64,000 bases of DNA from Cryobacterium breve (lineage in GTDB: Bacteria; Actinomycetota; Actinomycetes; Actinomycetales; Microbacteriaceae), in contig NZ_CP075584.1 in NCBI RefSeq assembly GCF_027594785.1, forward strand, positions 1,922,001-1,986,000. The letters run 5' to 3'. A model generated the notes under the pieces. It was not told the origin of the DNA. It did no database searches and worked only from the letters and a program-made list of their open reading frames with translations. Positions 1 to 63,406 of the stretch are shown here, one piece after another. The position numbers were made by a program, and so were the translations under genes. Within the stretch, counting starts at the first letter, position 1. The number at the start of each line of letters is the position of its first letter.

Positions 1-201
1 ATTTCCGGGTCTTCAACCCCGAGCCTGCAGGCGGCACGGTTCGATCCGCACGGCGAATACATCCGCGAGTACGTTCCCGAGATCGGCACGGATACCTACC
101 CCGCGCCGCTCGTCGACCTCGGCGAGACCCGGCGTGCGGCTCTTGCCGCCTATGAGTCCGTCAAGGCAGCGAAGGCGCCGGCGCCGGTTCCCCTGCCCTG
201 A
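1..201 (+). CDS. phr: Deoxyribodipyrimidine photolyase, C-terminal end (partial)
   Basis: Only the last ~65 codons lie in the window. After a one-base correction the reading is FRVFNPELQAARFDPHGEYI, then a segment with REYVPEIGTD and a short Ala/Pro tail to the TGA at 199-201. The pattern (F-R-x-F-N-P, then FDP-x-G-x-Y-x-R-x-YVPE) is the conserved FAD-domain end of the photolyase/cryptochrome family, which repairs UV-induced cyclobutane pyrimidine dimers with light. The frame is broken at 21-27, where GAGCCTG must read GAGCTG. A cryptochrome-like paralogue is possible because the catalytic part is outside the window. Confidence 0.75.
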   Translation: MSGSSTPSLQAARFDPHGEYIREYVPEIGTDTYPAPLVDLGETRRAALAAYESVKAAKAPAPVPLP

Positions 202-217
202 GCCTCGACGAGATCCA

Positions 218-274
218 TGAGGTGTCGCATATCGCTGTTCCCGGGCACAACGAACCTCGATGTGCGACACCTCA
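218..274. repeat. 57-bp imperfect palindrome, family B (copy 1 of 3)
   Basis: The outer arms are TGAGGTGTCGCATATC and its near-complement GATGTGCGACACCTCA, around a centre with a GTTC...GAAC pair. Two further copies with the same arms sit at 36616-36672 and 36694-36750. It follows the photolyase stop by 16 bp and could fold as a strong RNA hairpin, so it may also end transcription there. Confidence 0.8.
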
Positions 275-302
275 CGGGAGTTCAGGGACTCGCGACTTCC
301 GG

Positions 303-839
303 TCAGAGGGTGCGCTCGAGCACGAAGTCGTCCTCGTACCGGTCGCCGACCAGGAAGTGCTTGGTGCCAACCCGCGCGAAGCCGTGCTTCTCGTAGAAGC
401 GAATGGCCCGGGCGTTCTCCTGGTTCACCCCGAGCCAGGCACCGCGCGCTTCGCGGGCCCGCGCGGCGTCGAGCGTTGCCGTCATGAGAGACGCGGCCAC
501 TCCGCGCCCATGGCTCTCGGCGCGCAGGTAGCACTTGCTGAGCTCGACGGTCGGGCGGATGCTGATGGCCCCGAGCACGTCCGGATCGGCCGGTTCGCCG
601 AAGATCAGCATGGTGTAGCCGAGCGAGAGCCCGGTGTCCGGGTCTTCGGCGAGGAACAGCATCCGCTGGGGGTCGGCGAGGTAGGTGTCGAAGTTCGCCT
701 CGGCCAGGACGTCGCGGAGGAACGCGGCGATCGCCTCCGCTGTCGTGTGCGGAGGGCACGCGAGCGCGAAGGTCGCAGCAGCCAGTTCGGCGAGCACCCC
801 GGCATCCGCCGCCCCGGCCGTTCGTATCTCAATCACCAC
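303..839 (-). CDS. GNAT-family N-acetyltransferase
   Basis: 178 aa. It transfers an acyl group from acyl-CoA to an unidentified amine. Conserved GNAT elements are visible: a beta-strand ISIRPTVELSKCYLR (motif around residues 96-110), the pantetheine loop RAESHGRGVAASLM (R-x-x-x-x-G-x-A family form), and the C-terminal NQENARAIRFYEKHGFARVG signature near residues 140-160. No membrane segment or signal peptide is seen. It stands alone between two palindromic repeats. The substrate cannot be predicted. The ATG at 839 gives a complete domain, and no better start is seen upstream. Confidence 0.8.
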   Translation of the reverse strand: MVIEIRTAGAADAGVLAELAAATFALACPPHTTAEAIAAFLRDVLAEANFDTYLADPQRMLFLAEDPDTGLSLGYTMLIFGEPADPDVLGAISIRPTVELSKCYLRAESHGRGVAASLMTATLDAARAREARGAWLGVNQENARAIRFYEKHGFARVGTKHFLVGDRYEDDFVLERTL

Positions 840-884
840 CCCACCCTACCGACCCCGAACCCCGGATCCCTCCCTCACCGCCTC

Positions 885-949
885 CCGCGAGAGCGCACTT
901 TTGGCCCTTTAAACCCGAGGGTTAAAGGGCCAAAAGTGTACTCTCGCGG
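885..949. repeat. 65-bp palindrome, family A (copy 1 of 2)
   Basis: The arms CGCGAGAGCGCACTTTTGG and CCAAAAGTGTACTCTCGCG flank a centre CCCTTTAA...TTAAAGGG, giving a nearly perfect stem of about 28 bp. A second copy with the same arms is at 35000-35063. It lies just downstream of aceB (reverse strand), where it could act as a terminator. Confidence 0.85.
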
Positions 950-979: not shown

Positions 980-2588
<1,609 letters not shown>

Positions 2589-4253: not shown

Positions 4254-5745
4254 ATGATCAACGCCGATCCCTCCCTGCGCACCGCCCTGTCCCAGCCTGA
4301 ACCCGACGAGCACGGGATCGACGCCCTGACTCTCGGCCGGCGCATCCGTGAACTGCGCGGCTCCCGCCGGATGACCCTCGACACCCTCGCCGCCGCGGTC
4401 GGGCGGGCGCCGTCGCAGGTGTCGATGATCGAGAACGGCAAACGGGAGCCGCGCCTGTCGATGCTGCGCTCGATCGCGACCGCGCTCGGCACGACCGTCG
4501 ACGAGCTGCTCAAGACCGAGGCGCCGTCGGAGCGGGCCGCCCTCGAGATCGCCGTGGAACGGGCCCAGCGGGGGCCGGTGTTCACGGCCCTCGGGCTGCC
4601 GCACATCCGAATCGGCCGGTCAACGAGCGATGAGGCGCTGCAGACGATCCTCACCCTGCACCACGAGATCGAGCGCCTGCACCGGGAACGGGCGGCGACA
4701 CCCGAGGAGGCACGGCGGGCGAATGCCGAGCCTGCGCGGCATCATGCGCGCGCGGGACAACTACTTCCCCGAGCTCGAGGCCCAGGCGCTCGGGCTGCTG
4801 CGCGCGGTCGGCCATACCGGCGGACCGGTGCCGCAGCGGGTCGTCGCCGACATGGCCGCGCACCTCGGCTATTCGCTGCATTACGTCGCGGACCTGCCGC
4901 ACTCGACGCGCTCGGTCACCGACAAGCGCAACGGCCGGATCTACCTCCCGATCGAGCAGACGGCCTCCCGGGACACCCGCTCGCCGATCCTGCAGGCCTT
5001 CGCGAGCGCGCTCTGCGGGCACGAGGAGCCGACAAGTTATGCGGAATTTCTGCGGCAGCGGGTCGAGACCAACTACCTGACGGCGGCGATCCTGCTGCCG
5101 GAGGACGATGCCGTGAAGCTTCTGGCCGAGGCGAAGGCGCAGCGCAGCATCTCGATGGAGGACCTGCGGGACGCCTTCGCGGTCTCCTACGAGACGGCCG
5201 CGCACCGGTTCACGAACCTCGCAACGGCCCGGCTCGGCATCCCGGTGCACTTCATGAAGGTGCACGAGTCCGGCACGATCATCAAGGCCTACGAGAACGA
5301 CTCTGTCCGGTTCCCGAGCGACGCCCTCGGCGCCGTCGAGGGTACGACGGTCTGCCGCAGCTGGACGGCCCGGACGGTCTTCGACGTCGCCGACCGGTTC
5401 AGCCCCTGGTACCAGTACACCGACACCCCGTCCGGCACCTTCTGGTGCACCTCCCGCATCGCGAAGGCGAAGGAGGGCGAGTACTCGGTGAGCGTGGGCG
5501 TGCCGTTCTCGGAGACGAAGTGGTTCCTCGGCCGCGAAACGAACAACCGGGCCGTCTCACGGTGCCCGGACGAGAGCTGCTGTCGCAGCGCCCCCGGCGA
5601 GCTCGCCGAGCGCTGGGCGGGCCAGGCCTGGCCGGCCGCGCGCACCCCGACGAGCCTGCTCGCCGCGCTGCCGACCGGCACGTTCCCCGGCGTCGACCAG
5701 ACCGAGGTCTACCAGTTCCTGGAATCCCACTCCCCCACCGCCTGA
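4254..5745 (+). CDS. ramB: RamB-type glyoxylate regulator (XRE + IrrE-like domain; one frameshift)
   Basis: Transcriptional regulator of acetate metabolism. Residues ~25-80 form a Cro/C1 helix-turn-helix ([20 protein letters not shown], then [20 protein letters not shown]). After the break the frame continues [20 protein letters not shown], then a peptidase-like region ([20 protein letters not shown]) and a Cys-containing C-terminal domain ([23 protein letters not shown]) typical of the DUF2083/short-chain-fatty-acid regulator family. Frames join when GAGCCTG at 4728-4734 is read GAGCTG (residues NAELRG), giving about 496 aa, the usual RamB length. Divergence from aceA supports the assignment. 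The ATG at 4254 lies close behind the candidate operator. Confidence 0.9.
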
Positions 5746-7643: not shown

Positions 7644-9359
7644 TCCCGGTCCTCCTGCGCCGATGACTTCGATGCCGCCGGCGCCGCTGCGGACACCGGT
7701 TGCTTCCCCTGCTGCTGTTGTTGCTGCTGTTGTTGCTCCTGCTGGTCGCTGTTGCCCAGCGGTTTGTCCTGGGGCGAGTGGTCGACGGGGTGCGTGCCCG
7801 CGGCCGTCGCCTGGGTGTTCGCGGCCTGGTCGGCCACAAGACCCTGGATGTTGCGGGCGGAGGACTCGTGGTAGAAGTCGGGTTCGAGCCCGATCACCCA
7901 GGTGTCCTTGGACCCGCCGCCCTGGCTCGAGTTGACGACGAGCTCGCCCTCGGGCAGGGCGACGCGGGTCAGCCCGCCCGGCAGCACCCAGACATCCGTG
8001 CCGTCGTTCACTGCGAAGGGGCGCAGGTCGGCGTGGCGCGGCCTCATTCCGTCCTCGACCAGGGTCGGGATGGTCGAGAGCTGCACGACGGGCTGCGCGA
8101 TCCAGCCGCGCGGGTCACGCAGCAGCTGCTTCCGCAGCGTCGCGAGCTCCGCCTTCGACGCGGCGGGCCCCACGACGAGGCCCTTGCCCCCTGAGCCGTC
8201 GACGGGCTTGACCACGAGCTCGTCGAGCCGGTCGAGCACCTCTTCGAGCGCGAGGGGATCCTCGAGCCGCCAGGTGTCGACGTTCGGGATGATCGCGTCT
8301 TCGCCGAGGTAGTAGCGGATGAGATCGGGCAGGTAGGTGTAGACGAGCTTGTCGTCCGCGACCCCGTTCCCGACCGCGTTCGCGATCGTGACGTTTCCGA
8401 GCCGGGCTGCCATCAGCATGCCGGGCGACCCGAGCTGGGAGTCCGCACGGAACTGGAGCGGGTCGAGGAACTCGTCGTCGACCCGGCGATAGATCACGTC
8501 GACCCGGGTGGGGCCGGCGGTCGTGCGCATCCAGACGCGCCCGCCCGAGCAGAACAGGTCGCGGCCCTCGACGAGGCTCGACGCCCATCAGCCGGGCGAG
8601 CAGGGTGTGTTCGAAGTAGGCGGAGTTGAAGACGCCCGGGGTGAGCACGACGACGTTGGGGTCGTCGACCCCGGCGGGGGCGGATGCCCGCAGCGCCTGG
8701 AGAAGCTTGTTCGGATAGTCGCCGACGGGGCGCACCCGCATCGAGACGAAGAGTTCCGGGAGGGTCTGAGCCATCACGCGCCGGTTGGAGATGACATAGC
8801 TCACGCCGCTCGGCACCCGGACATTGTCCTCGAGCACCCGCCAGGCACCCTTTTCGTCGCGGATCAGGTCGATGCCGGAAACCTGGATGCGCACGTTGTT
8901 GGCCGAGACGATGCCGGCGGCCTGCCGGTGGAAGTGGTTCGACGAACTGATCAGGCTCGCCGGGATGACGCCGTCGTGCACGGCGGCCTGGGGGCCATAG
9001 ATATCGGCGAGGAACGCCTCGAGAGCGAGAACGCGCTGCTTGATCCCGGCCTCGACGGTGACCCATTCCGGCTGCTCGATCACCCGCGGCACGGCGTCGA
9101 GCGGGAACGGCCGCTCTTCCCCGGCGAAGTCGAAGGTGACTCCCTGGGCGAGGTAGGAGCTCGCGAGCGCCGCGGTGCGGCCGCGCAACTCCTCCTGGGT
9201 CATTTTGGCCAGGGCGCCGTAAACGTCCTTGTACGCCGCGCGCGTTTCCGTCGGAGTGAGCGAGGACGGATCCGGGAACATCTCGTCCCAGGCGCTCCCT
9301 GACCCCGTCCGTTTCCGACTCTTCGTAGTGGCACCGTAGCCGGTGAACAGGTCAACCAT
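7637..9359 (-). CDS. Circularly permuted ATP-grasp protein with polyglutamine tail (one frameshift)
   Basis: Predicted ATP-dependent carboxylate-amine ligase (DUF404/DUF407 type), probably a peptide-bond former. N-terminal frame: [57 protein letters not shown]-terminal frame: [36 protein letters not shown] and [15 protein letters not shown], the permuted nucleotide-binding loops. Frames join when GAGGCTC at 8573-8579 is read GAGCTC (GVELVEGRDL), giving about 573 aa. The last ~60 residues are an unusual tail with a run of ten consecutive Gln (about 7700-7735) followed by an Ala/Ser stretch. First gene of the trio with alpha-E and the transglutaminase-like protein. Confidence 0.9.
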
Positions 9360-11277: not shown

Positions 11278-12472
11278 TCAGAACGCCGACAGCCCGGTGA
11301 GGGCGCGACCGATCACGAGCTGGTGGATCTCGTCCGTGCCCTCGTAGGTGCGGACGGACTCGAGGTTGGCGAGGTGCCGCATGACCGGAAACTCGTTCGT
11401 CACGCCGTCGCCACCGAGGATCGACCGGGCGAGGCCGGCGATCCGGATGGCCTCGCGCACGCTGTTGAGCTTGCCGACGCTGATCTGCGCCGGCGTGAGG
11501 GTGCCGCGTTCCTTCAGCCGCCCGAGGTGCAGGGCGAGGAGGACGCCCTTTTCGTACTCGACGAGCATGTCGGCGAGTTTGGCCTGGGTGAGCCTGCATC
11601 GCCCCGATCGGGCGGCCGAACACCTCGCGACTGCGTGACCGGGCGATCGCAGCGTCGAGGCAGCTCCTGGCGGCGCCCATGGCGCCCCAGACGATGCCGA
11701 ATCTGGCCTCGTTCAGGCAGCCGAACGGGCCGGAGAGCCCCGTGGCGCCGGGCAGCACGGCGTCGGCGGGCAGGCGCACCCCGTCGAGCGTGACGTCGCA
11801 CTGGATGGACGCGCGCATCGAGAGTTTGCCTGCGATCGGTGTGGCCGTGAACCCGGCGGTCTCGGTGGGAACGAGGAATCCGCGCACCCCGGCATCCGTC
11901 TGCGCCCACACCACCGCCACGTCAGCGACGCTCGCGAGGCCGATCCAGCGTTTGGTGCCCGTGAGCACCCAGTCGTCGCCGTCGCGACGGGCGAACGTGC
12001 GCATCGCGGCGGGGTCGCTGCCGCCGGTCGGTTCGGTGAGGGCGAAGCAGCCGATGAGCGCGCCCGCGGCCATGCCGGGCAGCCAGCGCTGCTTCTGGTC
12101 TTCCGATCCATACTTGTGGATAGCCGACATGGCGAGCGAGCCCTGCACCGAGACGAGGGTGCGCCAGCCGCTGTCGGCGGCCTCGAGTTCGAGGCAGACG
12201 AGGCCGTAGCTCACTGCATTCGCGCCTGCGCAGCCGTAGCCCTCGAGGTGCATGCCGAGGAAACCGGCCGCGCCGAGCTCGGCGACAAGGTCGGCGCGGA
12301 AAAACCGGTCCTCGAAGTCCTGCTCGATAGTGGGCAGGATGCGGTTGGTCGCGAACGCGCGGGCCTTGCGCGACCAGACGACCTCCTCTGCGGCGAGGAG
12401 CTCGTCGAGATCGAAGACCGAGTCGACGAGAGGACTGGCGACGAGCGGGGTGGGACGGCCTGATGCGGTCAC
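11278..12472 (-). CDS. Acyl-CoA dehydrogenase, glutaryl-CoA dehydrogenase-like (one frameshift)
   Basis: FAD-dependent oxidation of an acyl-CoA, ~397 aa after correction. Visible family signatures: FALTEPTGGSDPAAMRT (FAD/substrate loop), GTKRWIGLASVADVAVVW, and in the second frame VREAIRIAGLARSILGGDGV, VMRHLANLESVRTYEGTDEI with the catalytic-base Glu in YEGT. Frames join when CAGGCTC (reverse strand of 11590-11596) is read CAGCTC, giving IGAMQLTQAKLADM. The start is GTG 12472, overlapping the CaiB stop by 4 bp (GTGA), so the two genes are co-translated. The Arg-containing substrate pocket and CaiB partner fit glutaryl-CoA dehydrogenase or a related dicarboxylyl-CoA enzyme. Confidence 0.87.
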
Positions 12473-19635: not shown

Positions 19636-20068
19636 TTAGGCCTCGACCGTAACGCCCATGGAGCGTGCGGTGCCGGCGATGATCTTCGCGGCGGCGTCGA
19701 TGTCGTTGGCGTTGAGGTCAACCATCTTCGCTTCGGCGATCTCGCGGACCTGCGCCTGGGTGAGCTTGGCCACCTTGACGGTGTGCGGGGTGCCGCTGCC
19801 CTTGGTGACTCCGGCGGCCTTCTTGATGAGCCTCCGCGGCGGGCGGGGTCTTCAGGATGAACGTGAAGGAACGGTCGTCGTACACGGTGATCTCAACCGG
19901 GATGACGTTGCCGCGCTGGGATTCGGTCTGGGCGTTGTATGCCTTGCAGAATTCCATGATGTTCACGCCGTGCTGGCCCAGTGCCGGCCCGATGGGCGGT
20001 GCGGGGTTAGCGGCGCCGGCCTTGATCTGAAGCTTGATCAGACCAGTAACCTTCTTCTTCGGTGCCAT
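19636..20068 (-). CDS. rplK: Ribosomal protein L11 (one frameshift in this sequence)
   Basis: Binds the GTPase-associated centre of 23S rRNA and is needed for stringent-response sensing and factor binding. The N-terminal frame reads [40 protein letters not shown]. The second frame gives [20 protein letters not shown] and ends [12 protein letters not shown] before a TAA at 19636. Frames join when GAGGCTC (reverse strand of 19828-19834) is read GAGCTC ([12 protein letters not shown]), restoring 143 aa, exact family length. A real inactivating mutation in this gene would be severely harmful, so this site is strong evidence that the recurrent breaks are artefacts. Confidence 0.96.
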
Positions 20069-21828: not shown

Positions 21829-23032
21829 GTGGCTCACGAACTCAAGCGAATCTCTACCCGGATCGGCTCCATCGCGGAATCGGCGACACTCAAGGTCGAC
21901 AGCAAGGCCAAGGCTCTCCAGGCGGCCGGTCGACCCGTGATCAGCTTCGCGGCGGGCGAACCGGACTTCCCGACCCCCGCGCACATCGTCGAGGCGGCGC
22001 TTCTCGCCGTGCGCGACCCGAAGAACCACAAGTACACGCCGGCCGCCGGTCTGCCCGACCTCCGCGAGGCCGTCGCGGCGAAGACGCTGCGCGATTCCGG
22101 CCTCGCGGTCTCCCCCGCCCAGGTGGTCATCACCAACGGCGGCAAGCAGGCCGTCTACCAGGCGTTCGCGACGCTGCTCGACCCGGGGGACGAGGTCATC
22201 GTGCCGACCCCGTACTGGACCACCTATCCGGAGTCGATCCGGCTGGCCGGCGGCGTGCAGGTCGACGTCTTCGCCGGCAGCGACCAGGGCTACCTCGTCA
22301 CCGTCGAGCAGGCTCGAGGCCGCCCGCACCGAGCGCACCAAGGTGCTGCTCTTCGTCTCGCCCTCCAACCCGACCGGCGCGGTCTACTCTCCGGAGCAGA
22401 CGAAGGCGATCGGCGAGTGGGCGGAGGAGCACGGACTCTGGGTCATCACCGACGAGATTTACCAGAACCTGACCTACGACGGCGTGCGCGCCGTCTCGAT
22501 CGTCGAGGCCGTTCCCGCCCTCGCGGACCGCACAATCCTCGTGAACGGCGTCGCCAAGACCTACGCGATGACCGGCTGGCGCCTGGGCTGGATGGTCGGC
22601 CCGCTCGACGCGATCAAGGCCGCGGCGAACCTGCAGTCCCATCTCACCTCGAACGTGTCCAACGTGTCGCAGCGCGCCGCGATCGCCGCCCTCACCGGCC
22701 CGCAGGACGACGCGATCGCGATGCGGGAGGCCTTCGACCGGCGCCGCCGGCTCATCGTCGCCGAGTTGAACAAGATCCCCGGCATGGTGACGCCGACGCC
22801 CCAGGGCGCGTTCTACGTCTACCCGAACGTGACCGGCCTGCTCGGCCGCACCTGGGGCGGGGTCACGCCGACGACGTCCCTCGAGCTCGCCGACCTGATC
22901 CTCGACCAGGCCGAAGTCGCCGCTGTCCCCGGTGAGGCGTTCGGCCCGAGCGGGTACCTGCGCTTCTCCTACGCGCTCGGGGACGACCAGCTGCTGGAAG
23001 GCATCCGCCGCCTGCAGCGCCTCTTCGCCTAA
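21829..23032 (+). CDS. aspC: Class I/II aminotransferase, aspartate aminotransferase-like (one frameshift)
   Basis: PLP enzyme of ~400 aa. Landmarks are [52 protein letters not shown], then in the second frame [30 protein letters not shown] (PLP-ring Asp and Tyr), and [18 protein letters not shown] with the Schiff-base Lys. Frames join when CAGGCTC at 22309-22315 is read CAGCTC ([16 protein letters not shown]). GTG 21829 is preceded by a CGTATGCT -10-like element at 8 bp, suggesting a leaderless message. An aspartate aminotransferase of the AAT-Ib type next to secE/nusG is common in actinobacteria. Confidence 0.9.
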
Positions 23033-23033
23033 C

Positions 23034-23202: not shown

Positions 23203-24169
23203 ATGACCACCACACCAGCGCCGCTCAAGAGCTCAGACCCCGTCGTGCGCGTGCGCGACCTGCACAAGTCCTACGGCGCATTCGAGGCCGTCTCGGGCAT
23301 CAGCTTCGACATCCGGCCCGGAGAGACCTTCGCGCTCCTCGGCCCGAACGGCGCAGGCAAGAGCACGGTCATCGAGATCCTCGAGGGCTACCGTGACCGC
23401 ACCAGCGGCGAGGTGAGCGTGCTCGGCACCGACCCGCAGCACGGCGGCCTCGACTGGAAGGCCCGGCTCGGCATCGTGCTGCAGTCGACGGGCGAGAGCG
23501 GCAACGTGACGGTCGCCGAGCAGGCTCGCGCACTTCGCGAGCCTCTACCCGAACCCGCGGGACGTGACGGAGGTGATCGCGGCCGTCGGCCTCGAGGACA
23601 AGGCGAAGACCCGTATCAGCCGGCTGTCCGGCGGGCAGCGCCGGCGAGTGGATGTCGCACTCGGCATCATCGGCCGGCCGGAGCTCCTCTTCCTCGACGA
23701 ACCGACAACGGGGTTCGACCCCGAGGCGCGGCACCAGTTCTGGGACCTCGTGCGCAGCCTGAAGGCAGAGGGCACCACGATCCTGCTCACAACCCACTAC
23801 CTCGACGAGGCCGCCCAGCTCGGCGACCGTGCCGGCGTGATCACCGGGGGCCGGCTGATCGACATCGGCGCGATCGACGAGATCGGTGGCGCCGAGGCAC
23901 GGGTGCCGCTCGTGCGCTGGCGGGATGCCGCCGGGCAGTCGCACGAGATCCGCACCGACCGGCCGGGTCGCGTCGTGGCCGAGCTCGTCGCGGCGAGCGG
24001 CGGGCCAGGCGGCGCGGCGGGCGGCGCGGAACCGGCCGAACTCGAGGTGATCCGGCCAAGCCTCGAGGACGTCTACCTCGGGCTCGTGCGCGAGGACCGC
24101 GCGGAGAATTCCGACACAGCGAATTCCGGCACATCCACTTCTGACGACAGCACGGAGGTGCTCGCATGA
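23203..24169 (+). CDS. ABC exporter ATP-binding protein, drug-type (one frameshift)
   Basis: Energises the membrane partner encoded next. Walker A LLGPNGAGKSTVIEILEG, Q-loop LGIVLQSTGE, signature SRLSGGQRRRVDVALGI, Walker B LLFLDEPTTGFDPEAR and switch LLTTHYLDEA are all intact, in the form typical of DrrA/daunorubicin-type exporters. Frames join when CAGGCTC at 23521-23527 is read CAGCTC (VAEQLAHFASLYPNPRDV), giving ~321 aa. The last ~70 residues vary. It overlaps the permease start by 4 bp (ATGA). No regulator binding site is apparent; the downstream two-component genes probably respond to the exported compound. Confidence 0.9.
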
Positions 24170-33580: not shown

Positions 33581-33586
33581 GGGCAC

Positions 33587-34027: not shown

Positions 34028-34471
34028 TCGTCTCCCCTGACGACGAGGATGGATGTCGCGGTGACGACGTGGGCGCCGGTCGCGTCGACGACGCGGGATT
34101 CCGCGGTGACCATCGAGTGGCCGCCGAGGCTCTTCACGCTTGCGACGGAGAGGGTCGCTGTCAGTTCGTCGCCGGCGACGATCGGACGGCTGAACGTGAA
34201 GCGCTGCTCACCGTGGACCACGCGGCTGAAGTCGATCCCGCCGTCGGGCTCGGCGAGGAGCCTGGGCGAGGGTGGCTTCCTGGACGACGACCGCGAAGGT
34301 CGGCGGGGCGACGACGTCGGCGTATCCGGCCGCACGGGCGGCCGCTGGGTCGTGGTTGATCGGGTTGCGCGCGAAGACGGCACGGGAGAACTCCCGCACC
34401 TTCTCCCGACCGACGAGATAAGGGGCGACGGGCGGGAAGACCCGGCCCTGCAGTTCGGGGTTGACAGACAC
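34024..34471 (-). CDS. MaoC-type dehydratase partner subunit, HadA-like (one frameshift)
   Basis: About 148 aa. Hot-dog fold N-terminal family: MSVNPELQGRVFPPVAPYLV, FARNPINHDPAAARAAGY, VVAPPTFAVVVQEATLAQ, then in the second frame GIDFSRVVHGEQRFTFSRPI. It lacks the complete Asp-x5-His site, as expected for the substrate-binding partner of the HadB-like gene. Frames join when CAGGCTC (reverse strand of 34258-34264) is read CAGCTC (TLAQLLAEPDGG). GTG 34471 follows a TAAACT -10-like box at 3-8 bp, suggesting a leaderless transcript. Confidence 0.85.
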
Positions 34472-40083: not shown

Positions 40084-41130
40084 GTGACCCAACCCACCCA
40101 AACCGCGCACCCGGCAACGGGCGCGCACGACCTCGCCGAGGAATTCCTCGACCGCACCACTCCCCTCAGCCGGCTGCGCGGCGTCATGCACCGTTACCCG
40201 GCGATCAGCCCGGCCGTCGTGCTCGTCATCGCGATCATCGTGTTCGGTATGCTCAACGAGCGGTTCCTCAACCCGGCGAACCTCTCCCTGATCACCCAGC
40301 AGGTCGCCGTCGTCGGCACCCTCGCGATCGCCCAGACGCTGATCATCCTCACCGCGGGCATCGACCTCTCCGTCGGCGCCGTGATGGTGCTCAGGCTCGA
40401 TGGTGATCGCCCAGTTCACGGTCCAGAACGGCCTCTCGCCCATCCTGGGCCTGCTCGCCGGACTTCTCGTCGCTCTCGCGGCCGGGGCCCTCAACGGGTT
40501 CCTCGTGACGCGGCTGCGCCTCCCCCGTTCATCGTCACCCTCGGCACCCTCAACGTCTTCGTCGCCCTCACGCTGCTCTACTCGAACGGCGCGACGGTTC
40601 GTGGCGGCGACATGCCCGACCTGCTGACCTGGACAGGGACGACGTTCTCCGTCGGCGGGGTGAACTTCACGATGGGCGTGCTGCTCATGCTTGTGCTCTA
40701 CATCGTGATCGCCTTCATCCTCTCCCAGACCGCATGGGGCAGGCACGTCTACGCCGTCGGCGACGACAAGGAGGCTGCCCGCCTGGCCGGCATCAGCGTC
40801 AGCCGGGTGCTGATGAGCGTCTACCTCGCCGCCGGTGCCATCCTCGCGATCGGCGCGTGGATCCAGATCGGACGCAGCAACGCCGCCTCGCCCAACGCGG
40901 GCACCGACCTCAACCTCGACTCGATCACCGCCGTCGTCATCGGCGGCACGAGCCTCTTCGGCGGCCGCGGCACCATCTGGGGAACCCTGCTCGGCGCCCT
41001 CATCGTCGGCGTCTTCCGCAACGGGCTCTCCCTCGCCGGCCTCGACGTGCTCTGGCAGACCTTCGCTGTCGGCGTGCTCATCGTTCTCGCCGTCTCCGTC
41101 GACCAGTGGATTCGAAAGGTACGCAAATGA
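40084..41130 (+). CDS. Sugar ABC transporter permease, RbsC/FrcC type (two frameshifts)
   Basis: About 349 aa, roughly ten membrane helices. Landmarks are RFLNPANLSLITQQVAVVGT, IILTAGIDLSVGAVMVL, FIVTLGTLNVFVALTLL, GDDKEAARLAGISVSRV (cytoplasmic EAA-like loop), and VVIGGTSLFGGRGTIWGTLL. Two breaks cancel: CAGGCTC at 40392-40398 should read CAGCTC (VLSSMVIAQF), and the C-run at 40522-40526 is one base short (RLRLPPFIVTLG). The start is GTG 40084. The stop overlaps the ATPase start (ATGA). Confidence 0.9.
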   Translation: MTQPTQTAHPATGAHDLAEEFLDRTTPLSRLRGVMHRYPAISPAVVLVIAIIVFGMLNERFLNPANLSLITQQVAVVGTLAIAQTLIILTAGIDLSVGAVMVLRLDGDRPVHGPERPLAHPGPARRTSRRSRGRGPQRVPRDAAAPPPFIVTLGTLNVFVALTLLYSNGATVRGGDMPDLLTWTGTTFSVGGVNFTMGVLLMLVLYIVIAFILSQTAWGRHVYAVGDDKEAARLAGISVSRVLMSVYLAAGAILAIGAWIQIGRSNAASPNAGTDLNLDSITAVVIGGTSLFGGRGTIWGTLLGALIVGVFRNGLSLAGLDVLWQTFAVGVLIVLAVSVDQWIRKVRK

Positions 41131-41934
41131 CCCTCATCGACGACAGCGCGGCTGCGGCCGGCGCACCGGCACCACTGCGCACGCCCATCCTCACGGCGAC
41201 GAAGCTCGTCAAGACCTACGGCCGCGTCGTCGGCCTCGACGGGGTCAGCCTTGAGGCTCTACCCCGGAGAGGTCCTCGCGATCATCGGCGACAACGGCGC
41301 GGGCAAGTCCACCCTGATCAAGTGCCTGACCGGCGCCGAGGTTGCCGACGAGGGCGAGATCACCCTCGACGGCAAGCCCGTGCAGTTCAAGCGGCCGCAG
41401 GACGCACACGCCGCCGGCATCGAGACGGTCTACCAGACCCTCGCCGTTTCCCCGGCCCTCGACGTGGCGTCGAACCTGTTCCTCGGCCGCGAGCTGCGGC
41501 GCGCGGGCCTGCTCGGCTCGGTGTTCCGCATGGTCGACAAGAAGGGCATGCGCAAGCGCGCGCGGCAGGAGCTGGCCGACCTCGGCATCAGCACCCTGCA
41601 GGACGTGACCGTCGCGGTCGAGAACCTCTCCGGCGGCCAACGCCAGGCCGTCGCCGTCGCGCGCGCGGCGGCGTTCGGTTCCAAGGTCGTCGTCCTCGAC
41701 GAGCCGACGGCGGCGCTCGGCGTCCGGGAATCGAACCAGGTCCTCCAGCTCGTGAAGAACCTGCGCGAGCGCGGCATCCCGGTCATCCTGATCAGCCACA
41801 ATATGCCGCACGTGTTCGAGGTCGCCGACCGCATCCACATCCAGCGTCTCGGCAAATGCGCCGCGACGATCACGCCACAATCACATTCCATGACGGACGC
41901 CGTCGCAATCATGACAGGGGCCCGCAAGGCATGA
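41127..41934 (+). CDS. Sugar ABC transporter ATP-binding protein, single-domain (one frameshift)
   Basis: About 268 aa, only one ATPase domain (FrcA-like), unlike the doubled RbsA. Walker A IIGDNGAGKSTLIKCLTG, signature ENLSGGQRQAVAVARA, Walker B VVVLDEPTAALGVRES, switch ILISHNMPHVFEVADR. Frames join when GAGGCTC at 41253-41259 is read GAGCTC (GVSLELYPGEVLAIIG). Overlaps the permease and the following monooxygenase gene by 4 bp each. Confidence 0.92.
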
Positions 41935-43057: not shown

Positions 43058-44450
43058 ATGACCGCGAAACCCACTGGCCCGCTCGGCCATCGATACCAGC
43101 TCAAGGAGCTGATCGGAAGCGGCGGCATGGCCTCCGTCTACCGTGCGACCGACGACCGGCTGGGCCGGGATGTCGCGATCAAGGTCTTCCGGACCGTCGC
43201 CATCGAACAGGGCGACATCGAGCGCCAGCAGGCCGAGATCAACGTGCTTGCGAGCCTGAGCCACCACAGCCTCGTGACGCTCTTCGACGTCGGCGTACAC
43301 ACAGCGTCGCCGGAACGGCGCCAGATCTTCCTCGTGATGGGAGCTCATCGACGGCGCCGACCTTCGGGACCGGCTGCTCGAGGGCCCGTTGTCCGTGCGG
43401 AACATCGCCCAGATCGGCTATGACCTCGCCGAAGGGCTTGATTACATCCACGGGCGCGGCATCGTGCACCGCGACATCAAGCCGGCGAACATCCTCCTCG
43501 CGCAGTACAGCAGCCGGTTCCGGGCCCGCGCCAAACTGACTGATTTCGGCATTGCGCTGTCACCGGCGAGTGCGCGCCTCACGGAGGGCGGAGCGACGTC
43601 GGGGACGGCGGCGTACCTCAGCCCGGAGCAGGCCCAGGGCGATGAGGTCGGACCTCCCAGCGACATCTACTCGCTCGGGCTGGTCTTGTTGGAGTGTTTC
43701 ACGAGGGAACTGGCCTTCCCCGGTCAGCCGGTGCCCGCCGCGGTCGCACGCCTGCTGCGCGACCCCGGGATTCCAGCGTCGATGTCGCCGGCCTGGCGCG
43801 ACCTGCTGTCGACGATGCTCGCGCGGAATCCCGCCGACCGCCCCGAGATCGGCGAGGTCGTGCTCGCGCTCCGCCAGGCCGTCATCACGGAAACGGGCAG
43901 GCACCGCGGCGACGGCCAGGTTCCCCTCTCGACCGACGAGGCCGAGCGGATGGCGGCCGTCGCGCGCCTGGACATCCTCGACACCCCGCCCGACGACACC
44001 TTCGACCGGATCACCGCGCTCGCCGCCAGGATCTTCTCCGTGCCGATCGCGATCGTGAGCATCGTCGACCACGACCGCATCTGGTTCAAGTCCCATCCCG
44101 GCCTCGACCTCGAGCAGATCTCCCGAGACCCGGGCCTGTGCTCCTCTGCGATCATGCAGGAAGGCCCCTGGGTGATCGAAGATGCGCGCACGGATACCCG
44201 TGCGCTCACGAATCCCCTGGTCTCCGGCGGTTTCGGCCTGCAGTTCTACGCGGGAGTCCCGCTGCGCACCCGGGACGGGTTCAACCTGGGCACCCTGTGC
44301 GTGCTCGATTTCGAACCGAGAACCGTGACGGATGCCGAGATCGAGACCCTGCGCGACCTCGCCGCCCTGGTCATGAACGAACTGGAGCTGCGGCTCGAGT
44401 ACGGCAGGGACCTCACCCGGCCGGCTGCGGCATCCGCTTCAGCGGGCTGA
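43058..44450 (+). CDS. Soluble Ser/Thr protein kinase fused to a GAF domain (one frameshift)
   Basis: About 464 aa. Kinase domain at ~1-275: glycine loop LIGSGGMASVYRATDD, ATP-Lys in DVAIKVF, catalytic loop IVHRDIKPANILLAQ, DFG in LTDFGIALSP, APE-like YLSPEQAQG. Then a GAF domain (RMAAVARLDILDTPPDDTFD, VPIAIVSIVDHDRIWFKSHP, GLQFYAGVPLRTRDGFNLGT). No transmembrane or PASTA segment, so it is cytosolic and the GAF may sense a small molecule. The frame breaks at 43339-43341, where GGGAGCTC should read GGAGCTC (LVMELIDGADLRDR). A TATACT -10 box lies at 43033-43038. Confidence 0.88.
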
Positions 44451-46951: not shown

Positions 46952-46999
46952 TGGGAGGCGCGGCCCGGTGCGCCCCCGGCCGGGTACCTGGGTCGAGCC

Positions 47000-47711
47000 C
47001 TAGTGGGACGGGTCGAGGGTGAACAGGCTCCGGGTTGGTCTGCCGCACCGCGGCGATGTCGTTGAAGACCCGACGCAGGTGCTCCCGCATGGCGCTCGCG
47101 GCAGCATCCCCATCGCCAGCGGCGAGCGAGTCGGTGATGACCTGATGCTGGTCGATCAGCACGCTCATCCCGGTGAAGGAGAGCGACAGGTGCCGCGCCC
47201 TGTCGAGGTGCGCCTTGGCCTGGGCGACGGTCCGCCAGGCGGAGCCGTGGCCGCTGATGCCCATCAGGGTCGCGTGGAATTCCTCGTCGAGGGTGAAGAA
47301 TCCGGACTGGGTCTTGCGGCTGTCCGCGATTCGCTGCGCGTCGATGATCGCGTTGAGTTCGGCGATGTCGTCGGGCGTCACCCGGGCGACGGACTCGTTC
47401 AGCGCCGCGAGCTCGAGCGACTCACGCACGAACTGGGCCGTTTCGATCTCCGAGAGCAGGATCGGCGCGACGAGCGTGCCGACCTGGGGGACCACGAAGA
47501 CGAGTTGCTCCTCGGCGAGGAGGATGAGGCTCTCGCGGATCGGGGTGCGCGACAACCCGAGCTGGCCGGCGAGCTCGTTCTCGGAGAGCCGGGTGCCGGG
47601 GGCCAGGTCGAGAGTGATGATCTTCTGGCGGATGATCTCGAGGGCGTGCGTGCGGGCGTTGCGCCGTGTGGTCGCGGGCCTGGCCCGAATCGCTCCCGAA
47701 TCCATCGTCAT
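47000..47711 (-). CDS. GntR-family regulator, FCD subclass (one frameshift near the end)
   Basis: About 236 aa. Winged helix-turn-helix LEIIRQKIITLDLAPGTRLS, NELAGQLGLSRTPIRESLIL; FCD domain ETAQFVRESLELAALNESVA, LDEEFHATLMGISGHGSAWR, DQHQVITDSLAAGDGDAAAS. When GAGCCTG (reverse strand of CAGGCTC at 47024-47030) is read GAGCTG, the protein ends PELFTLDPSH at a TAG (47002-47000). A CATACTAG box just upstream is shared with the uronate operon promoter, suggesting it is the UxuR/ExuR-like regulator of the divergently described genes at 47797-50684. Confidence 0.87.
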
Positions 47712-48873: not shown

Positions 48874-50556
48874 GATGCTGTCTCCTCTGTGTTGCTTGTG
48901 GTGCCGTTGCTTGTGGTGCTTGTGGTGCTTGTGCTTGTGCTTGTGGTGCTCGCGTACTTGTGCAGCGTGCTCCGGACCGCTCCCGGGCCCGCGACGAGTT
49001 CTTCGACGTACCCCTCGATCCGCGCACCGAGTCCGGTGTCGTACAGGTTCAGTCCGAAGATCTCCCGGTTGGAGAGGATCGGATGCAGCCGCCTGCCGAC
49101 GCTCGCCGGGTCGCCGAGACTGATGTCGCTCACGTACCGGCGCAGGTGCTCGTTCATCGGGTCCGGGCTCAGGCTCGAACGGCTCTCCCTCGTCGTCGAG
49201 TGCCAGCAGATAGCGGCACCAGCCGGCGATCGCGAGCGGAATGAAGGTCAGATCGTCGACGGTGTCGGTGTTGCGGTAGAGCTTGATCGTCTCGCCGAAG
49301 CGGATGCCGACCTTCTGCGAGGTGTCGGAGGCGATCCTCTGCGGGGTGTCCGGAATGCGTTTGTTCGGCAGCCGTTCCCCCACGACCTGGTCGAGGAAGC
49401 TCTTCGGGTCGATAATGCCGGGGTTCGTCACGACCGGGAGCCCCTCGCGGTAGCCGATCCCCGCGATCAGGGCCGAAATGTCGGCGTCTGCGGTCTCGTC
49501 GGCGATCGACGTGAAGCCCAGCAGGCATCCGTAGATCGCCATGGCCGTGTGCAGCGGATTGAGGCACGTGCACACCTTCATGCGTTCGACCTTGTTGACG
49601 GTGTCGCGGTCGGTGAAGTACACCCCGGCCTTCTCGAGCGGCGGACGGCCGTTCGGGAAGGTGTCCTCGACGACGAGGTAGTTGACTTCCTCAGTGTTGA
49701 CGAAGGGCGCCGTCGTCGTGTGCTTCAGCGTGACGAGAATCTCGGTGTCGCCGAATCCCGCCGCCCGCAGCTCGCTCGCGACGGAGGCCGAGGGGCTCGG
49801 GGTGATCCGGTCGATCATGCTCCAGGGGAACGCGACCTTCGCCGGGTCGGAGAGGTAGCTGAGGAACCCGTCATCGACGAAGCCCCGGTCCTTCCAGGCA
49901 CGGGCGACCACGAGGATCGCGTCGCGGAGCTTTTCGCCGTTGTGCGAGAAGTTGTCGGTGCTGACCATCGCGATCGGGGTCGCGCCGGCCCTGTAGCGCT
50001 CGAGGAGGAGCGACGCGAGGTGCGCCATGGTGTGCCGCGCGTGGTCCGGGCCCGCCTCGATGTCCCCCAGCACGAGCCCGGAGAGCTCGCCGTCCGGACC
50101 CTTCAGGTTGTAGCCCTTCTCGGTGATCGTGACCGTGGCGAGCTGCAGGCTCGGGTTGGCGAAGATCGCCCTGACCCGTGCCGTGCCTGCCGGGTTCGAC
50201 TCCGCGAGGTACTGGCTCTCAGTGATGCTCGCGATCAGTTCCTTCTCGATATCACCGTTCGCATTCATCACGACGGTCAGGGAGAGGTTGTCGCGACCCT
50301 GGTAGATCGTCTCGATCAGTTCGTCGTCGTAGGTGTCGACGACGACGATGCCGGTGTCGCTCTCGCCGGCGTTGAGCAGTCGCTGCTGCAGCGAGGCGTG
50401 CAGGCAGCGGAACAGGTTGCCGCCGCCGAAGTGGATCCAGGCCGGGTTCGCCGTGGTGGCTCGCGTGACCGCGGCGCGGTCGAAGTGCGGCACGGTGATG
50501 CCGGCCGCTTCGAATGCGGCGAGGTTCTGAATGGTTTCGGTCGTGAGCATCAGCAT
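48864..50556 (-). CDS. uxuB: Mannitol dehydrogenase family, fructuronate reductase-like (one frameshift)
   Basis: About 563 aa, NAD-dependent; expected to reduce fructuronate to mannonate for the dehydratase downstream. Landmarks are [20 protein letters not shown] (dinucleotide-binding), [57 protein letters not shown] (catalytic Lys/Asn/His region). Frames join when GAGCCTG (reverse strand of CAGGCTC at 49170-49176) is read GAGCTG ([17 protein letters not shown]). The last ~30 residues are an extra Ser/Thr-rich tail encoded by short CACAAG-type repeats. The start overlaps a 42-codon ORF's stop (TGATG). Confidence 0.9.
48893..48955. repeat. Microsatellite-like repeat encoding a Ser/Thr tail
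   Basis: Imperfect iterations of GTGCTTGTG and CTTGTGGTG. They are read in the reverse-strand reductase frame as alternating Ser and Thr. The GTT/CTT variation suggests replication slippage. Confidence 0.65.
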
Positions 50557-50875: not shown

Positions 50876-50893
50876 GTGCGCGAAGGCCGCCGC

Positions 50894-54671: not shown

Positions 54672-56087
54672 AGGTTCTGGGTCTCGGCTCCCTGGGGCGA
54701 CGGCTCCTGCTCGCGTTTGCGCTCGTGGCCGTGTCGTCGGTGCTCGTACTCAGCGTCGCTGCCCTGATCGGCGTCGATCGGGGGGTGCAGGTCACCCAGC
54801 AGGCCGGCCGCGAACAGGTCGCTGACTCCGCAGCCGCGGCCGCGGCCGACGCATATCGATCGGCCGGCGGGTGGGAGACCGCAGAACTGGGGCGCACCCT
54901 CGCCATCGGTGACGCCGCATCCGCAGGTCTCACGGTCCTCGACATGGCGGGAGCGCCGATCACGTCGAGCGGCGGAATGATGGGCGGCACGACCGACGGC
55001 CAGGGCATGGGAATGGGTTCGGGGATGGGTCAGGCCGTGGCCTCGGCGCCGGTCATGGTCGACGGCACCCAGGTCGGCACGGTCCGGCTGACGTTCGGTT
55101 CAATGGCGGGAACTACCGTGTTCGACGTCACCTGGGCGTGGATCGCCGTCGCCGCCGCCGTCGCGCTCGTGATCGCGCTGGGCGCGAGTTGGTTCGTCAC
55201 ACGGCTGCTCGTGCGCCCGATCCGGGCCATGACGGATGCTGCCACCTTGTTCACAACCGGCGACCGGAGTGCCCGGGCCACGAGCCCAGCGCCTGGGGAG
55301 CTCGGCGAGCTGGCATCCGCGTTCAACGGCATGGCCGACGCGGTCGTCCGTTCCGATCGTGATCTGCGCACCCTCACCGCGGATGTGGCCCACGAGTTGC
55401 GCACCCCGCTCGCGGCCCTCCAGGCCGGCCTCGAGGAGCCTGCGCGACGGCCTCGCGGAGCCGACGCCCGCAAGCCTCGCCGGGCTGCACGACCAGTCGC
55501 TACGGCTGGGACGAATCGTCGCGGACCTGGCCGAGCTGTCGGCTGTTGAGACTAGCGGCCTGTCCATGCGTCTGGCCACGGTCGACCTCACCCAGGTCAC
55601 CCGCGACGCACTGGCCGAGTGGGAGCCGCGACTGCGGGTCGCCGGGCTCACTGTTGTCGCACGCCTGGCCGACCCGGTCTGGGTGCGCGCAGACGCCGGA
55701 CGTCTGCATCAGGCCGTCGGGAACCTCCTCGCCAACAGCGCCCGCTACTGCAGGCCGGGCGATTCCGTGACGCTGATCGTGTCGGCCGACGACGGCCAGG
55801 CGGTGCTCTGTGTGGCCGACACCGGCCCCGGCATCACCGCCGATGAACTCCCGCACGTCTTCGACCGGCTCTGGCGGGGCCGGGATGCGGCGGGGATCTC
55901 CGGATCGGGAATCGGCCTCGCCCTGGTGCGGGAAATCGCGGCCAGCCACGGCGGCACAGCGGATGCAGCGTCCCTCCCCGGGCAAGGAATGACGATCGCC
56001 ATTCGGTTGCCCGTGGCGAGACGGCCTGATCCAGGTCGGGCCCCCGGCGCCAGCTCAGGCTCGGGAGGCTTCGGACTCCGTGGGTAG
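54668..56087 (+). CDS. Sensor histidine kinase with Met-rich extracellular loop (one frameshift)
   Basis: About 472 aa. Helix 1 at ~11-35, extracellular domain ~36-153, helix 2 at ~155-178, HAMP, then a HisKA domain (TADVAHELRTPLAALQAGLE, His242) and HATPase (NLLANSARYCRPGDSVTLIV, VADTGPGITADELPHVFDRL, GSGIGLALVREIAASHGG). The extracellular loop has a Met/Gly cluster (GGMMGGTTDGQGMGMGSGMG, residues ~102-121), suggesting copper or silver sensing. Frames join when GAGCCTG at 55436-55442 is read GAGCTG (AGLEELRDGLAEPT). The partner of the preceding regulator. Confidence 0.92.
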
Positions 56088-60842: not shown

Positions 60843-61338
60843 GCCGTTATTGTCTCAGCACCCTGCCGTTCCTGGCACGTGGGTATCGGTCCTCGCGATG
60901 GCGGGAGTCACCCTTCCGCCCGGCCACCAGGGTGTGCGACACCACGCCCTGGCCGTGGCCGCGGCCGCGGCCGGAGAACCATCCCGTTTCGCTTCCGGCT
61001 GCTCTCGCCCGACCGTGCGCCCCACGCCCAGCGTAGAGTGGATGTGTGAGCCGACACAGGCTCCGGGCGTCGGTGCGGCACAACGTATTCGGCTTCCGAA
61101 TCGCCCGAATCGCCATCGAAGCCGGCCGGAGTGATGCCTGGTTTCGCTGGGTGGACTGGACCGCCACCTCGTCTTGATCGAGGAGATCAGCGCATCGGGC
61201 AGCAGCCGGAAGTCCTCGGTCGCCGCAGCATCCAGCTCGGCGCCGTGGATCGCAACCACGCTTGCCCCATCCCCACGCCAACCGCTCGCGCCCGTGTCGC
61301 GCGGCTCCCCGAATTCGTCACCAGGTAAGGACCCACCC
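60843..61338. other. 496-bp stretch without an assignable gene
   Basis: No family is recognised on either strand. One short possibility is a forward ORF of 43 codons, GTG 61046 to TGA 61177, behind a TAGAGT -10-like box, reading ASVRHNVFGFRIARIAIEAG then [15 protein letters not shown]. It carries an ACAGGCTCC at 61056-61064 of the error-prone type, so its frame is not safe. The remaining DNA includes a run of CGGCCGCGGCC and the deoC leader with TAAGGA near 61326. Confidence 0.3.
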
Positions 61339-62034
61339 ATGACAACACCCCTCGTCGAAACCATCAGCATCGCCAGCTACATCGACCACACCCTACTCAA
61401 GCCCGAAGCCACCACCGCCGACGTCACCGCCCTCGTCGCCGAGGCCATCGCGCTCGGCACCTACTCGGTCTGCGTCTCCCCCTCGATGCTGCCGCTCACC
61501 ATTCCCGCCGACGCCGACCTCAAGGTCGCGGTCGTCTGCGGTTTCCCCAGCGGAAAGCACCACAGCGTCATCAAGGCCGCCGAGGCAGCCCTCTCCATCG
61601 CGCAAGGCGCCGACGAGGTCGATATGGTCATCGACATCGGCGCTGCCAAGTCCGGCCGCTTCGCGGACGTGCAGGCCGATATCTCGGCTGTGCGGTCCAG
61701 CGTCCCCGCACCGAAGGTGCTCAAGGTCATCATCGAATCCGCGGCCCTGACCGATGCCGAGATCGTCGCCGTCTGCGAGGCCGCGGTTGCCGCCGGCGCT
61801 GACTTCGTCAAAACCTCCACCGGATTCCACCCCGCTGGCGGCGCCACGGTGCATGCCGTGCGCCTGATGAAGCGGACGGTGGGCGACCGGGCCCAGGTGA
61901 AGGCATCGGGCGGAGTCCGCAGCTTCGACGATGCCCTCGCCATGATCGAAGCGGGCGCGAGCCGGCTCGGCGTCTCCGGTAGCGCAGCGCTGCTCGCCGG
62001 CGCCGTCCCGACCGGAGCGGCCGGTAGCTACTGA
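61339..62034 (+). CDS. deoC: Deoxyribose-phosphate aldolase
   Basis: 231 aa class I aldolase converting 2-deoxyribose 5-phosphate to glyceraldehyde 3-phosphate and acetaldehyde. Signature [55 protein letters not shown] (proton-relay Asp), and [15 protein letters not shown] (Schiff-base region Lys), followed by [20 protein letters not shown] with the second catalytic Lys. ATG 61339 sits behind AAGGA. Stands alone. Confidence 0.96.
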
Positions 62035-62208
62035 CCCCTTCACGGGCGAAAAGCCTCTGATCTCATTGCCCACGATGAACTGGTCGATGTGCGCCGTTGT
62101 CGACGGACGGAACACTGCGCAACAAAAGTTCCCTGTTCCGGAATCGCTGACTACGCTTTTCGAAAGTCCGCCAGCCGAGGCCGCTTACCCCATCGTGAAG
62201 GACCAGCC

Positions 62209-62787
62209 ATGACCGTTCTCGAAGAAGTCCTGTCAGCAAACAACGCTTACGCCGAAGCATTCGGCGACAAGTCAGAGCTCGCCCTGCCGCCGGCCCGGGG
62301 CTTCGCCATCCTCACCTGCATGGACGCGCGCCTCGATCCGGCCAAGTACGCGGGCCTGAGCGAAGGGGACGCGCACGTGATCCGCAACGCCGGCGGCCGC
62401 GCCTCCGACGACGCCATCCGCTCGCTCGTCATCTCCTACAAGCTTCTGGGCACCAAGGAATGGTTCGTCATCCACCACACCAACTGCGGGATGGAGTTCT
62501 TCACCGACGAGGTCATCCGCGGACTGCTCGGCAACAGCCTCGAGACGGCCGCCCTCGGCGAGGCCGGCTTCTACGACGTCGGCACCGGCCCCGGCTCGAC
62601 CGAGGCGAAGTACGTCGACTGGCTGACCATCTCCGACCAGGCAGCGAGCGTGCTGGAGGACGTAGCACGCATCAAGGCGCATCCGCTTGTTCCCGCGGGG
62701 ATCCCGGTCTACGGCTACATCTACGACGTGACGACAGGCCGGCTCGTCGAGGTGCCCGCTGCGACGGCAGCCGGTTCGGTGCGCTGA
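62209..62787 (+). CDS. Beta-class carbonic anhydrase
   Basis: 192 aa. Interconverts CO2 and bicarbonate with a Cys2His zinc site: [17 protein letters not shown] (Cys with the Asp-Arg dyad) and [20 protein letters not shown] (His and Cys). [15 protein letters not shown] matches the family core. ATG 62209; a longer frame to 62089 is upstream DNA. The leader has an inverted GGAAC...GTTCC pair around 62110-62130. Confidence 0.9.
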
Positions 62788-62854
62788 GACCGCCGACCCC
62801 GCGCTGAGGCGCGGTGCAGGGGCAGACCTGCGGGTGCGAGCCAGCCTTGTGCAT

Positions 62855-63406
62855 CTACGGCGCGGGGGCGAGCATCCAGATGACTTCGCAGGATTCTGCC
62901 GAGGACGGGTTGCGCCAGCGATGCGGATCCCGTCCGCGGAAGGTCATCGCGTCGCCTGTATCGAGCAGGAAGACGTCTTCGCCGATGACCAGGCTCGAGA
63001 GCCTCCGGCCAGAACGAGGACGAACTCCGCTTCGCTCTCGAGCTCGTAGAGGTCCGGGCCCGCCGACCCACCTGGCTGGATGCGGGAGTGGATCACCTGC
63101 ATGTGGGTTTGCACACCCCGGCGTCAGCAGGAACTCCTCGGCACCCTGCCCCCCGAAGTTGATCGGCGCCCCTTCGCCGGCACGCACTACCTGGGTGGCC
63201 GGCGCTTCGAAGAGTTCTCCCACTCGGAGCCCGACGACATCGCAGATCGCGACGAGGGAGGAGACGGAGGGCGACACCTGGTCGCGTTCCATGCGGCTCA
63301 GGAACCCCGAAGTGACTCCCGCCGCGGTGGAGACCGCCTCCAGGGTCAGGTTCTTGGCCTGCCGGGCAGCGCGGAGCCGCGCTCCAATCGGAATCTGACG
63401 TGCCAT
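62855..63406 (-). CDS. XRE-cupin transcriptional regulator (three one-base insertions)
   Basis: About 181 aa after correction. N-terminal helix-turn-helix GARLRAARQAKNLTLEAVST, GFLSRMERDQVSPSVSSLVA, then a C-terminal cupin (VQTHMQVIHSRIQPGGSAGP, LYELESEAEFVLVLAG, GDAMTFRGRDPHRWRNPSSA). As printed the frame looks open, but its middle is scrambled: an extra G in the run near 63115-63118, GAGGCTC at 62999-63005 (reverse strand) and GAGCCTG for GAGCTG at 62990-62996 add three bases in all and restore the frame. The corrected middle reads LVLAGALELVIGEDVFLL. Lies 10 bp downstream of the cyclase gene; probably regulates it. Confidence 0.85.
   Translation of the reverse strand: MARQIPIGARLRAARQAKNLTLEAVSTAAGVTSGFLSRMERDQVSPSVSSLVAICDVVGLRVGELFEAPATQVVRAGEGAPINFGGQGAEEFLLTPGCANPHAGDPLPHPARWVGGPGPLRARERSGVRPRSGRRLSSLVIGEDVFLLDTGDAMTFRGRDPHRWRNPSSAESCEVIWMLAPAP

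What the first reader, a model, noticed from the sequence alone, without database searches (positions are those of the whole stretch)
21..63005. Twenty-one frame breaks share one lesion: an extra base inside SAGCTC
Seen directly: in 19 genes the frame is restored by changing CAGGCTC or GAGGCTC (or complement) to CAGCTC or GAGCTC. Sites begin at 21, 1355, 4728, 8573, 11590, 19828, 22309, 23521, 27136, 28471, 32965, 34258, 37101, 39000, 40392, 41253, 47024, 49170, 55436, 62990 and 62999. They occur in sense or antisense orientation to the gene and hit rplK and murB. Two further breaks (30805, 43339) also abut GAGCTC. Intact SAGCTC sites remain (for example 36017). Inference: a consensus error at a motif that disturbs the sequencing signal, possibly a methylated SAGCTC recognised by a host methyltransferase.
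Basis: partly seen in the sequence, partly recalled or inferred. Interest (0 to 1): 0.8.

Follow-up and report, generated by a model that had tools for sequence, protein, structure and literature searches.

The report
Methylation-linked assembly errors at SAGCTS
These genes are very probably not broken in the bacterium: the assembly carries one extra letter at a short DNA word that the cell probably methylates, which is a known kind of long-read sequencing error, so the finding is an artefact that happens to reveal likely methylation sites.

Summary
The 21 extra bases are in the assembly but very probably not in the organism. The genome is a single-contig Cryobacterium, 83% complete; 12 same-genus genomes are 96-100%. 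Against a complete sister (91% identity), 15 of 21 sites show one extra base; the other six lie where the sister does not align and rest on codon frame and domains (weak for 39000, 62990, 62999). Over 697 kb, 131 of 230 clean one-base insertions and 0 of 74 one-base deletions are at SAGGCTC. The affected word is SAGCTS: CAGCTC 103 of 464 sites, GAGCTC 13 of about 330, AAGCTC 0 of 288. The rate depends on neighbouring bases (CAGCTCC 43/66, CCAGCTCG 0/105) and on assembly strand. Runs of six are shortened in 21 of 50 cases, as in nanopore data. A second error word, GAAG(N5)GAT, looks like a Type I restriction site (13/223 against 8/6563), and the genome has three HsdM/HsdS loci. SAGCTS is a published m4C motif in Beggiatoa. 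Best reading: long-read, probably nanopore, consensus errors at host-modified SAGCTS. Modification was not measured and the enzyme is not identified. The artefact class is known; the two motifs are the useful by-product.

The parts
21..27 (-). extra-base site (CAGGCTC)
   Evidence: codon test unclear
1355..1361 (+). extra-base site in malate synthase gene (minus strand)
4728..4734 (-). extra-base site in an HTH regulator gene (plus strand)
8573..8579 (+). extra-base site (GAGGCTC)
11590..11596 (-). extra-base site near acyl-CoA dehydrogenase-like ORF
19828..19834 (-). extra-base site in rplK: L11 N and C domains fall in two ORFs (19718-20068, 19636-19773, minus)
22309..22315 (+). extra-base site in an aminotransferase gene
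23521..23527 (+). extra-base site in an ABC-transporter ATPase gene
27136..27142 (-). extra-base site in response-regulator region
28471..28477 (+). extra-base site in histidine-kinase region (minus strand)
32965..32971 (+). extra-base site in murB: FAD_binding_4 and MurB_C fall in two ORFs (32687-33586, 32371-33102, minus)
34258..34264 (-). extra-base site
37101..37107 (-). extra-base site in a PfkB-family kinase gene
39000..39006 (+). extra-base site near the start of a periplasmic sugar-binding protein gene; weak support
40392..40398 (+). extra-base site in a permease gene; frame returns near 40500
41253..41259 (+). extra-base site in an ABC ATPase gene
47024..47030 (+). extra-base site that joins a GntR/FCD gene to the downstream ArsR-phosphatase reading frame (apparent ORF 45699-47711, minus)
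49170..49176 (+). extra-base site that makes an apparent mannitol-dehydrogenase/UxuA fusion (ORF 47797-50556, minus)
55436..55442 (-). extra-base site between HisKA and HATPase_c of a sensor kinase
62990..62996 (+). first of two sites 9 bases apart in an HTH/cupin regulator (minus); weak support
   Evidence: codon test 'no shift'
62999..63005 (-). second of the pair; weak support
   Evidence: codon test 'no shift'
43339..43346 (+). one-base insertion abutting GAGCTC (same class, other position)
30804..30817 (+). shortened C run, not a SAGCTS site: separate error type

Best explanation
The extra bases are systematic consensus errors in a long-read (most likely nanopore) assembly of native Cryobacterium DNA. 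The host modifies SAGCTS (inferred). The modified bases distort the raw signal, and in certain neighbouring-base contexts the basecaller or polisher writes one extra G in the middle of CAGCTC, less often of GAGCTC, and more often where CAGCTC lies on the assembly's plus strand. GAAG(N5)GAT, which has the form of a Type I restriction-modification site, causes insertions by the same route. Shown: the sister lacks the base, the word specificity, the dependence on context and strand, the shortened homopolymers, and the second motif. Inferred: that the cause is methylation, the platform, and the enzymes.
For: Sister lacks the base at 15 of 15 alignable sites. 131 of 230 clean one-base insertions over 697 kb are at SAGGCTC, 0 of 74 one-base deletions. 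By sister hexamer CAGCTC 103/464, GAGCTC 13/about 330, CAGCTG 1/about 145, AAGCTC 0/288, AAGCTG 0/122, TAGCTC 0/63, CAGCTA 0/61. CAGCTCC 43/66 but CCAGCTCG 0/105. Hit rate 65/211 on the assembly + strand, 38/253 on the - strand, p=5e-5. Whole-genome CAGCTCC 285 against 824 in the sister. GAAG with N5GAT 13/223, without 8/6563, p=6e-15; three HsdM and HsdS in the genome. Homopolymers of six: 21 of 50 shortened, 1 lengthened. murB, essential by established knowledge, is split. Methylation-linked nanopore errors are published (passages), and SAGCTS is a published m4C motif (tables).
Against: No read or signal data. Only 22% of CAGCTC and about 4% of GAGCTC are hit, so a context effect must be assumed. 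The strand bias is absent in one of three regions (0.2-0.6 Mb, p=0.83), and replication strand was not tested. Runs of four and five show no net shortening (5 against 4 each, single-base changes). No methyltransferase is shown to recognise SAGCTS. One paper passage (PMC12392509) says that in its data methylated motifs GATC and GANTC did not lead to errors.
Confidence: 0.85

Rival explanations
1. A modification-independent miscall: the basecaller or polisher misreads the unmodified word CAGCTC in some contexts.
For: The rate follows the bases directly next to the word, as a pore k-mer effect would. No methylation data exist here.
Against: The same assembly has a second error word whose effect depends on GAT about nine bases beyond the inserted base (13/223 against 8/6563), which is the form of a Type I site; a basecaller with long context could in principle still do this. 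SAGCTS coincides with a published m4C motif.
Confidence: 0.12
2. Real mutations: a nuclease cuts the middle of SAGCTS and error-prone joining adds one base, or another mutational process targets this word.
For: The base is added at the centre of the word, where blunt cutters of GAGCTC, CAGCTG and AGCT cut (recalled).
Against: 131 clean insertions in 697 kb, about 750-1000 genome-wide by my estimate, with murB and rplK split, would not be viable. The hit rate depends on assembly strand. The sister lacks the base at the alignable sites.
Confidence: 0.01
3. Programmed ribosomal frameshifting at AGG-containing signals restores these genes.
For: One word recurs in many genes.
Against: The word lies in sense and antisense orientation to the genes. 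The sister lacks the base. The other SAGGCTC in the window mostly show no break: 27 of 32 'no shift'.
Confidence: 0.005

Closest known systems
Nanopore consensus errors at methylated motifs (Dcm CCWGG in Klebsiella, PMC6591954, passages; multicentre typing study PMC11389150, passages)
   Same: Errors concentrate in one short motif, differ between strands, and sit beside homopolymer-length errors; attributed to native-DNA methylation absent from the training data.
   Different: Here the word is SAGCTS, the lesion is a one-base insertion, and it is read from an assembly without reads; no PCR control exists.
SAGCTS m4C Type II methyltransferases M.Ble402III / M.Ble401III of Beggiatoa leptomitoformis (PMC4675945, PMC5920184, tables)
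   Same: The word is the same as the one that fits the errors here.
   Different: Different phylum; the modification type here is unknown; homology of a Cryobacterium enzyme to M.Ble402III was not tested.
Type I restriction-modification systems
   Same: GAAG(N5)GAT is bipartite with a fixed five-base gap; the genome has three HsdM with adjacent HsdS.
   Different: No HsdS was matched to this motif, and HsdR was not searched.
GRGCYC 5mC motif in Propionibacterium freudenreichii (PMC11649196, passages)
   Same: Covers GAGCTC.
   Different: Does not cover CAGCTC, the main word hit here.

Membership tests
Methylation-linked long-read consensus error | Errors confined to one short motif, absent in a clean relative | tested here: met
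Methylation-linked long-read consensus error | Strand-specific behaviour | tested here: met
   65/211 against 38/253; 1.66 Mb p=0.002 and 0.003, but one of three regions shows none
Methylation-linked long-read consensus error | Disappears after PCR amplification or with short reads | not testable with these tools
   no reads available
Methylation-linked long-read consensus error | A host methyltransferase recognises the motif | tested here: inconclusive
   candidates present; none tied to SAGCTS
Nanopore origin of the assembly | Long homopolymers shortened | tested here: met
   runs of six 21 of 50 shortened, of seven 4 of 5; runs of four and five not
SAGCTS Type II methyltransferase (M.Ble402III kind) | Target word SAGCTS | tested here: met
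   error word fits: 131/1356 at SAGCTS against 7/743 at other NAGCTN, six of the seven reading as SAGCTS plus one base here; inferred from errors only, and CAGCTG is hardly hit
SAGCTS Type II methyltransferase (M.Ble402III kind) | m4C chemistry and homology to the Beggiatoa enzyme | not tested
Type I restriction-modification target | Bipartite motif with fixed gap | tested here: met
   gap of 5: 13 events; gaps 2-4 and 6-9: 0-2 each
Type I restriction-modification target | HsdM and HsdS genes present | tested here: met
Type I restriction-modification target | A given HsdS recognises GAAG(N5)GAT | not testable with these tools
   no specificity database at hand
Programmed frameshift signal | Fixed orientation to the gene and presence in relatives | tested here: not met

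The most novel reading that the evidence does not exclude
Probability: 0.25. Interest if true: 0.45.

Novelty: new member of a known kind. Interest (0 to 1): 0.3.

Why it matters
Hundreds of false frame breaks and at least two false gene fusions in a reference genome would mislead annotation, completeness scores and pseudogene counts. Comparing the errors with a clean sister also recovers likely methylation motifs from an assembly alone, which could be tried on other public genomes.

Tried and rejected
Programmed frameshifting and real mutation were rejected (see rivals). A plain GAGCTC (SacI-type) specificity was rejected because CAGCTC is hit about five times as often as GAGCTC. A longer word around CAGCTC was sought to 24 bases on either side: the strongest signals are at -1 and +1, weaker ones at -2, +2 and +3, and a weak one at -23 of p=0.0005 among 192 tests. 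Further gapped motifs were sought among 105 residual one-base indels; the list is headed by G/C-run words and no new motif was recognised. Eco57I (PF07669) gave only the places of two HsdM loci; PF02086 gave none. Other methyltransferase families were not searched. The conserved PF01555 enzyme (318 aa; 5 of 5 genomes searched) stays a candidate; its best solved relative by sequence is M.RsrI. One search covered the wrong strand of that locus by my mistake and its hits mean nothing. A plasmid search with the C5 methyltransferase (limit of 5000 records reached) gave products without a stated specificity in the 15 rows listed; best a Rathayibacter festucae plasmid, 57% over 92%. Searches for CAGCTC with 'methylation motif' and for four spellings of GAAG(N5)GAT found no paper. 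The search for Cryobacterium with nanopore and complete genome listed 5 papers, none recognised as this genome from title and abstract start. Searches were listings only and added nothing used.
Full report
Setting. The window is bases 1922001-1986000 of a 3,959,299-base single-contig genome, G000, completeness 83.38%; the 12 other genomes of its genus in that search are 96-100% complete. Named relatives of a window protein place it in Cryobacterium (C. glucosi 97%, C. algoricola 96% protein identity), an actinobacterial genus. Sister G005 (100% complete) is syntenic in reverse order, with a mean identity of 91.1% over the aligned part.

Observation. All 21 positions carry the word. At 15 of 21 the alignment to the sister shows one extra base here. 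No one-base insertion is listed at the other 32 SAGGCTC, of which 28 lie in aligned stretches (52.6 kb of alignment). The other six claimed sites lie where the sister does not align. Codon-frame tracks and Pfam support 55436 clearly, 41253 and 40392 fairly, and 39000, 62990 and 62999 weakly. A codon test of all 53 sites gave a shift at 15 of 21 claimed and 2 of 32 unclaimed sites, the latter two next to another insertion. It did not call 62990 and 62999 shifts.

Genes. The extra base splits rplK (L11 N and C domains in two ORFs) and murB (FAD_binding_4 and MurB_C). It also makes false fusions. In ORF 47797-50556 the mannitol-dehydrogenase C domain stops at residue 464, where site 49170 lies (about residue 462, my arithmetic), and the ORF runs on into UxuA. 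ORF 45699-47711 joins GntR/FCD to the ArsR-phosphatase frame at site 47024 (about residue 229).

Scale. Whole-genome SAGGCTC is 2780 here and 1910 in the sister; the reversed control is 1800 and 1905. CAGCTCC is 285 here, 824 in the sister and 579-1037 in the other 11 same-genus genomes. Over 697 kb aligned, 409 clean isolated indels were found (of 676 isolated). Of 230 one-base insertions 131 are at SAGGCTC; of 74 one-base deletions none is. This suggests about 750-1000 such insertions in the genome (my estimate). In the first 396 kb, an unbiased count ranked CAGCTC the most depleted and CAGGCT (complement AGCCTG) the most enriched hexamer against the sister.

Specificity. By sister hexamer, as hit/(hit+intact): CAGCTC 103/464, always +G and never +C; GAGCTC 13/about 330; CAGCTG 1/about 145; AAGCTC 0/288; AAGCTG 0/122; TAGCTC 0/63; CAGCTA 0/61. 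Palindromes are counted once. Substituted, skipped and otherwise changed sites are left out; for CAGCTC these are 171, 45 and 4. With substituted sites kept, SAGCTS is 131/1356 and other NAGCTN 7/743 (p=4e-18). Of those seven, six read in this genome as SAGCTS plus one base. Neighbouring bases decide: CAGCTCC 43/66, GCAGCTCC 18/22, CCAGCTCG 0/105, ACAGCTCG 0/21.

Strand. CAGCTC on the assembly's + strand is hit at 65/211, on the - strand at 38/253 (p=5e-5), the same way in both halves (p=0.02 and 0.001). Pooled over 1.66 Mb of this genome the bias holds for CAGCTCC (p=0.002) and GCAGCTCG (p=0.003), and not in the sister (0.39, 0.43). For CAGCTCC by region it is absent at 0.2-0.6 Mb (p=0.83), present at 3.2-3.6 Mb (p=0.013) and at 1.52-2.39 Mb (p=0.035). 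Whole-genome CAGCTCC is 117 on + and 168 on - (p=0.003). I did not locate the replication origin, so an effect of replication strand is not formally excluded.

Second word. Residual insertions cluster just 5' of GAAG when GAT follows after five bases: 13/223, against 8/6563 without GAT (odds ratio 51, p=6e-15). Gaps of 2-4 and 6-9 gave 0-2 events each. Whole-genome KGGAAGN5GAT is 129 here, 87 in the sister and 54-94 in the other same-genus genomes; the largest among more distant genomes is 118. This is the form of a Type I site, and G000 has three HsdM loci with HsdS. Dependence on bases about nine positions away speaks for a modified base rather than a plain k-mer miscall, though modern basecallers see long contexts.

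Platform. Runs of six in the sister are shortened here in 21 of 50 cases and lengthened in 1; runs of seven are shortened in 4 of 5. Runs of four and five show no net shortening. This is usual for nanopore data (established knowledge). Wick 2019 (PMC6591954, passages) gives about 70% of consensus errors in Dcm motifs for the then current basecallers. PMC11389150 (passages) reports strand-specific errors attributed to methylation and largely resolved by PCR amplification. [quoted passage not shown]

Verdict. A known class of artefact with two informative motifs. Interest is modest; the practical message is that these genes should not be read as broken.

Noticed in passing
window 50808-50880 (intergenic): A GC-rich hairpin repeat (RNA fold z = -5.2) with many similar copies on both strands in this genome and in 10 of the 12 other same-genus genomes searched (none in G009 and G010). 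It looks like a dispersed palindromic element.
   Followed up: partly
[not shown]
   Followed up: partly
window 40392-40510 and 63000-63120: The best codon frame returns to its first phase shortly after the SAGGCTC sites, so a further indel of another kind probably lies in each stretch.
   Followed up: no
window 45699-47711, minus strand: Downstream of the artefact, one frame holds an ArsR-type HTH, a phosphatase-like N-terminal domain and a low-molecular-weight phosphatase (arsenate-reductase-like) domain; this part may be a natural fusion.
   Followed up: no
window 21573-21645 (tRNA) and 21678: The only Rfam match in the window is a tRNA; a C run just beside it is one base longer than in the sister, against the general shortening of long runs.
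   Followed up: no
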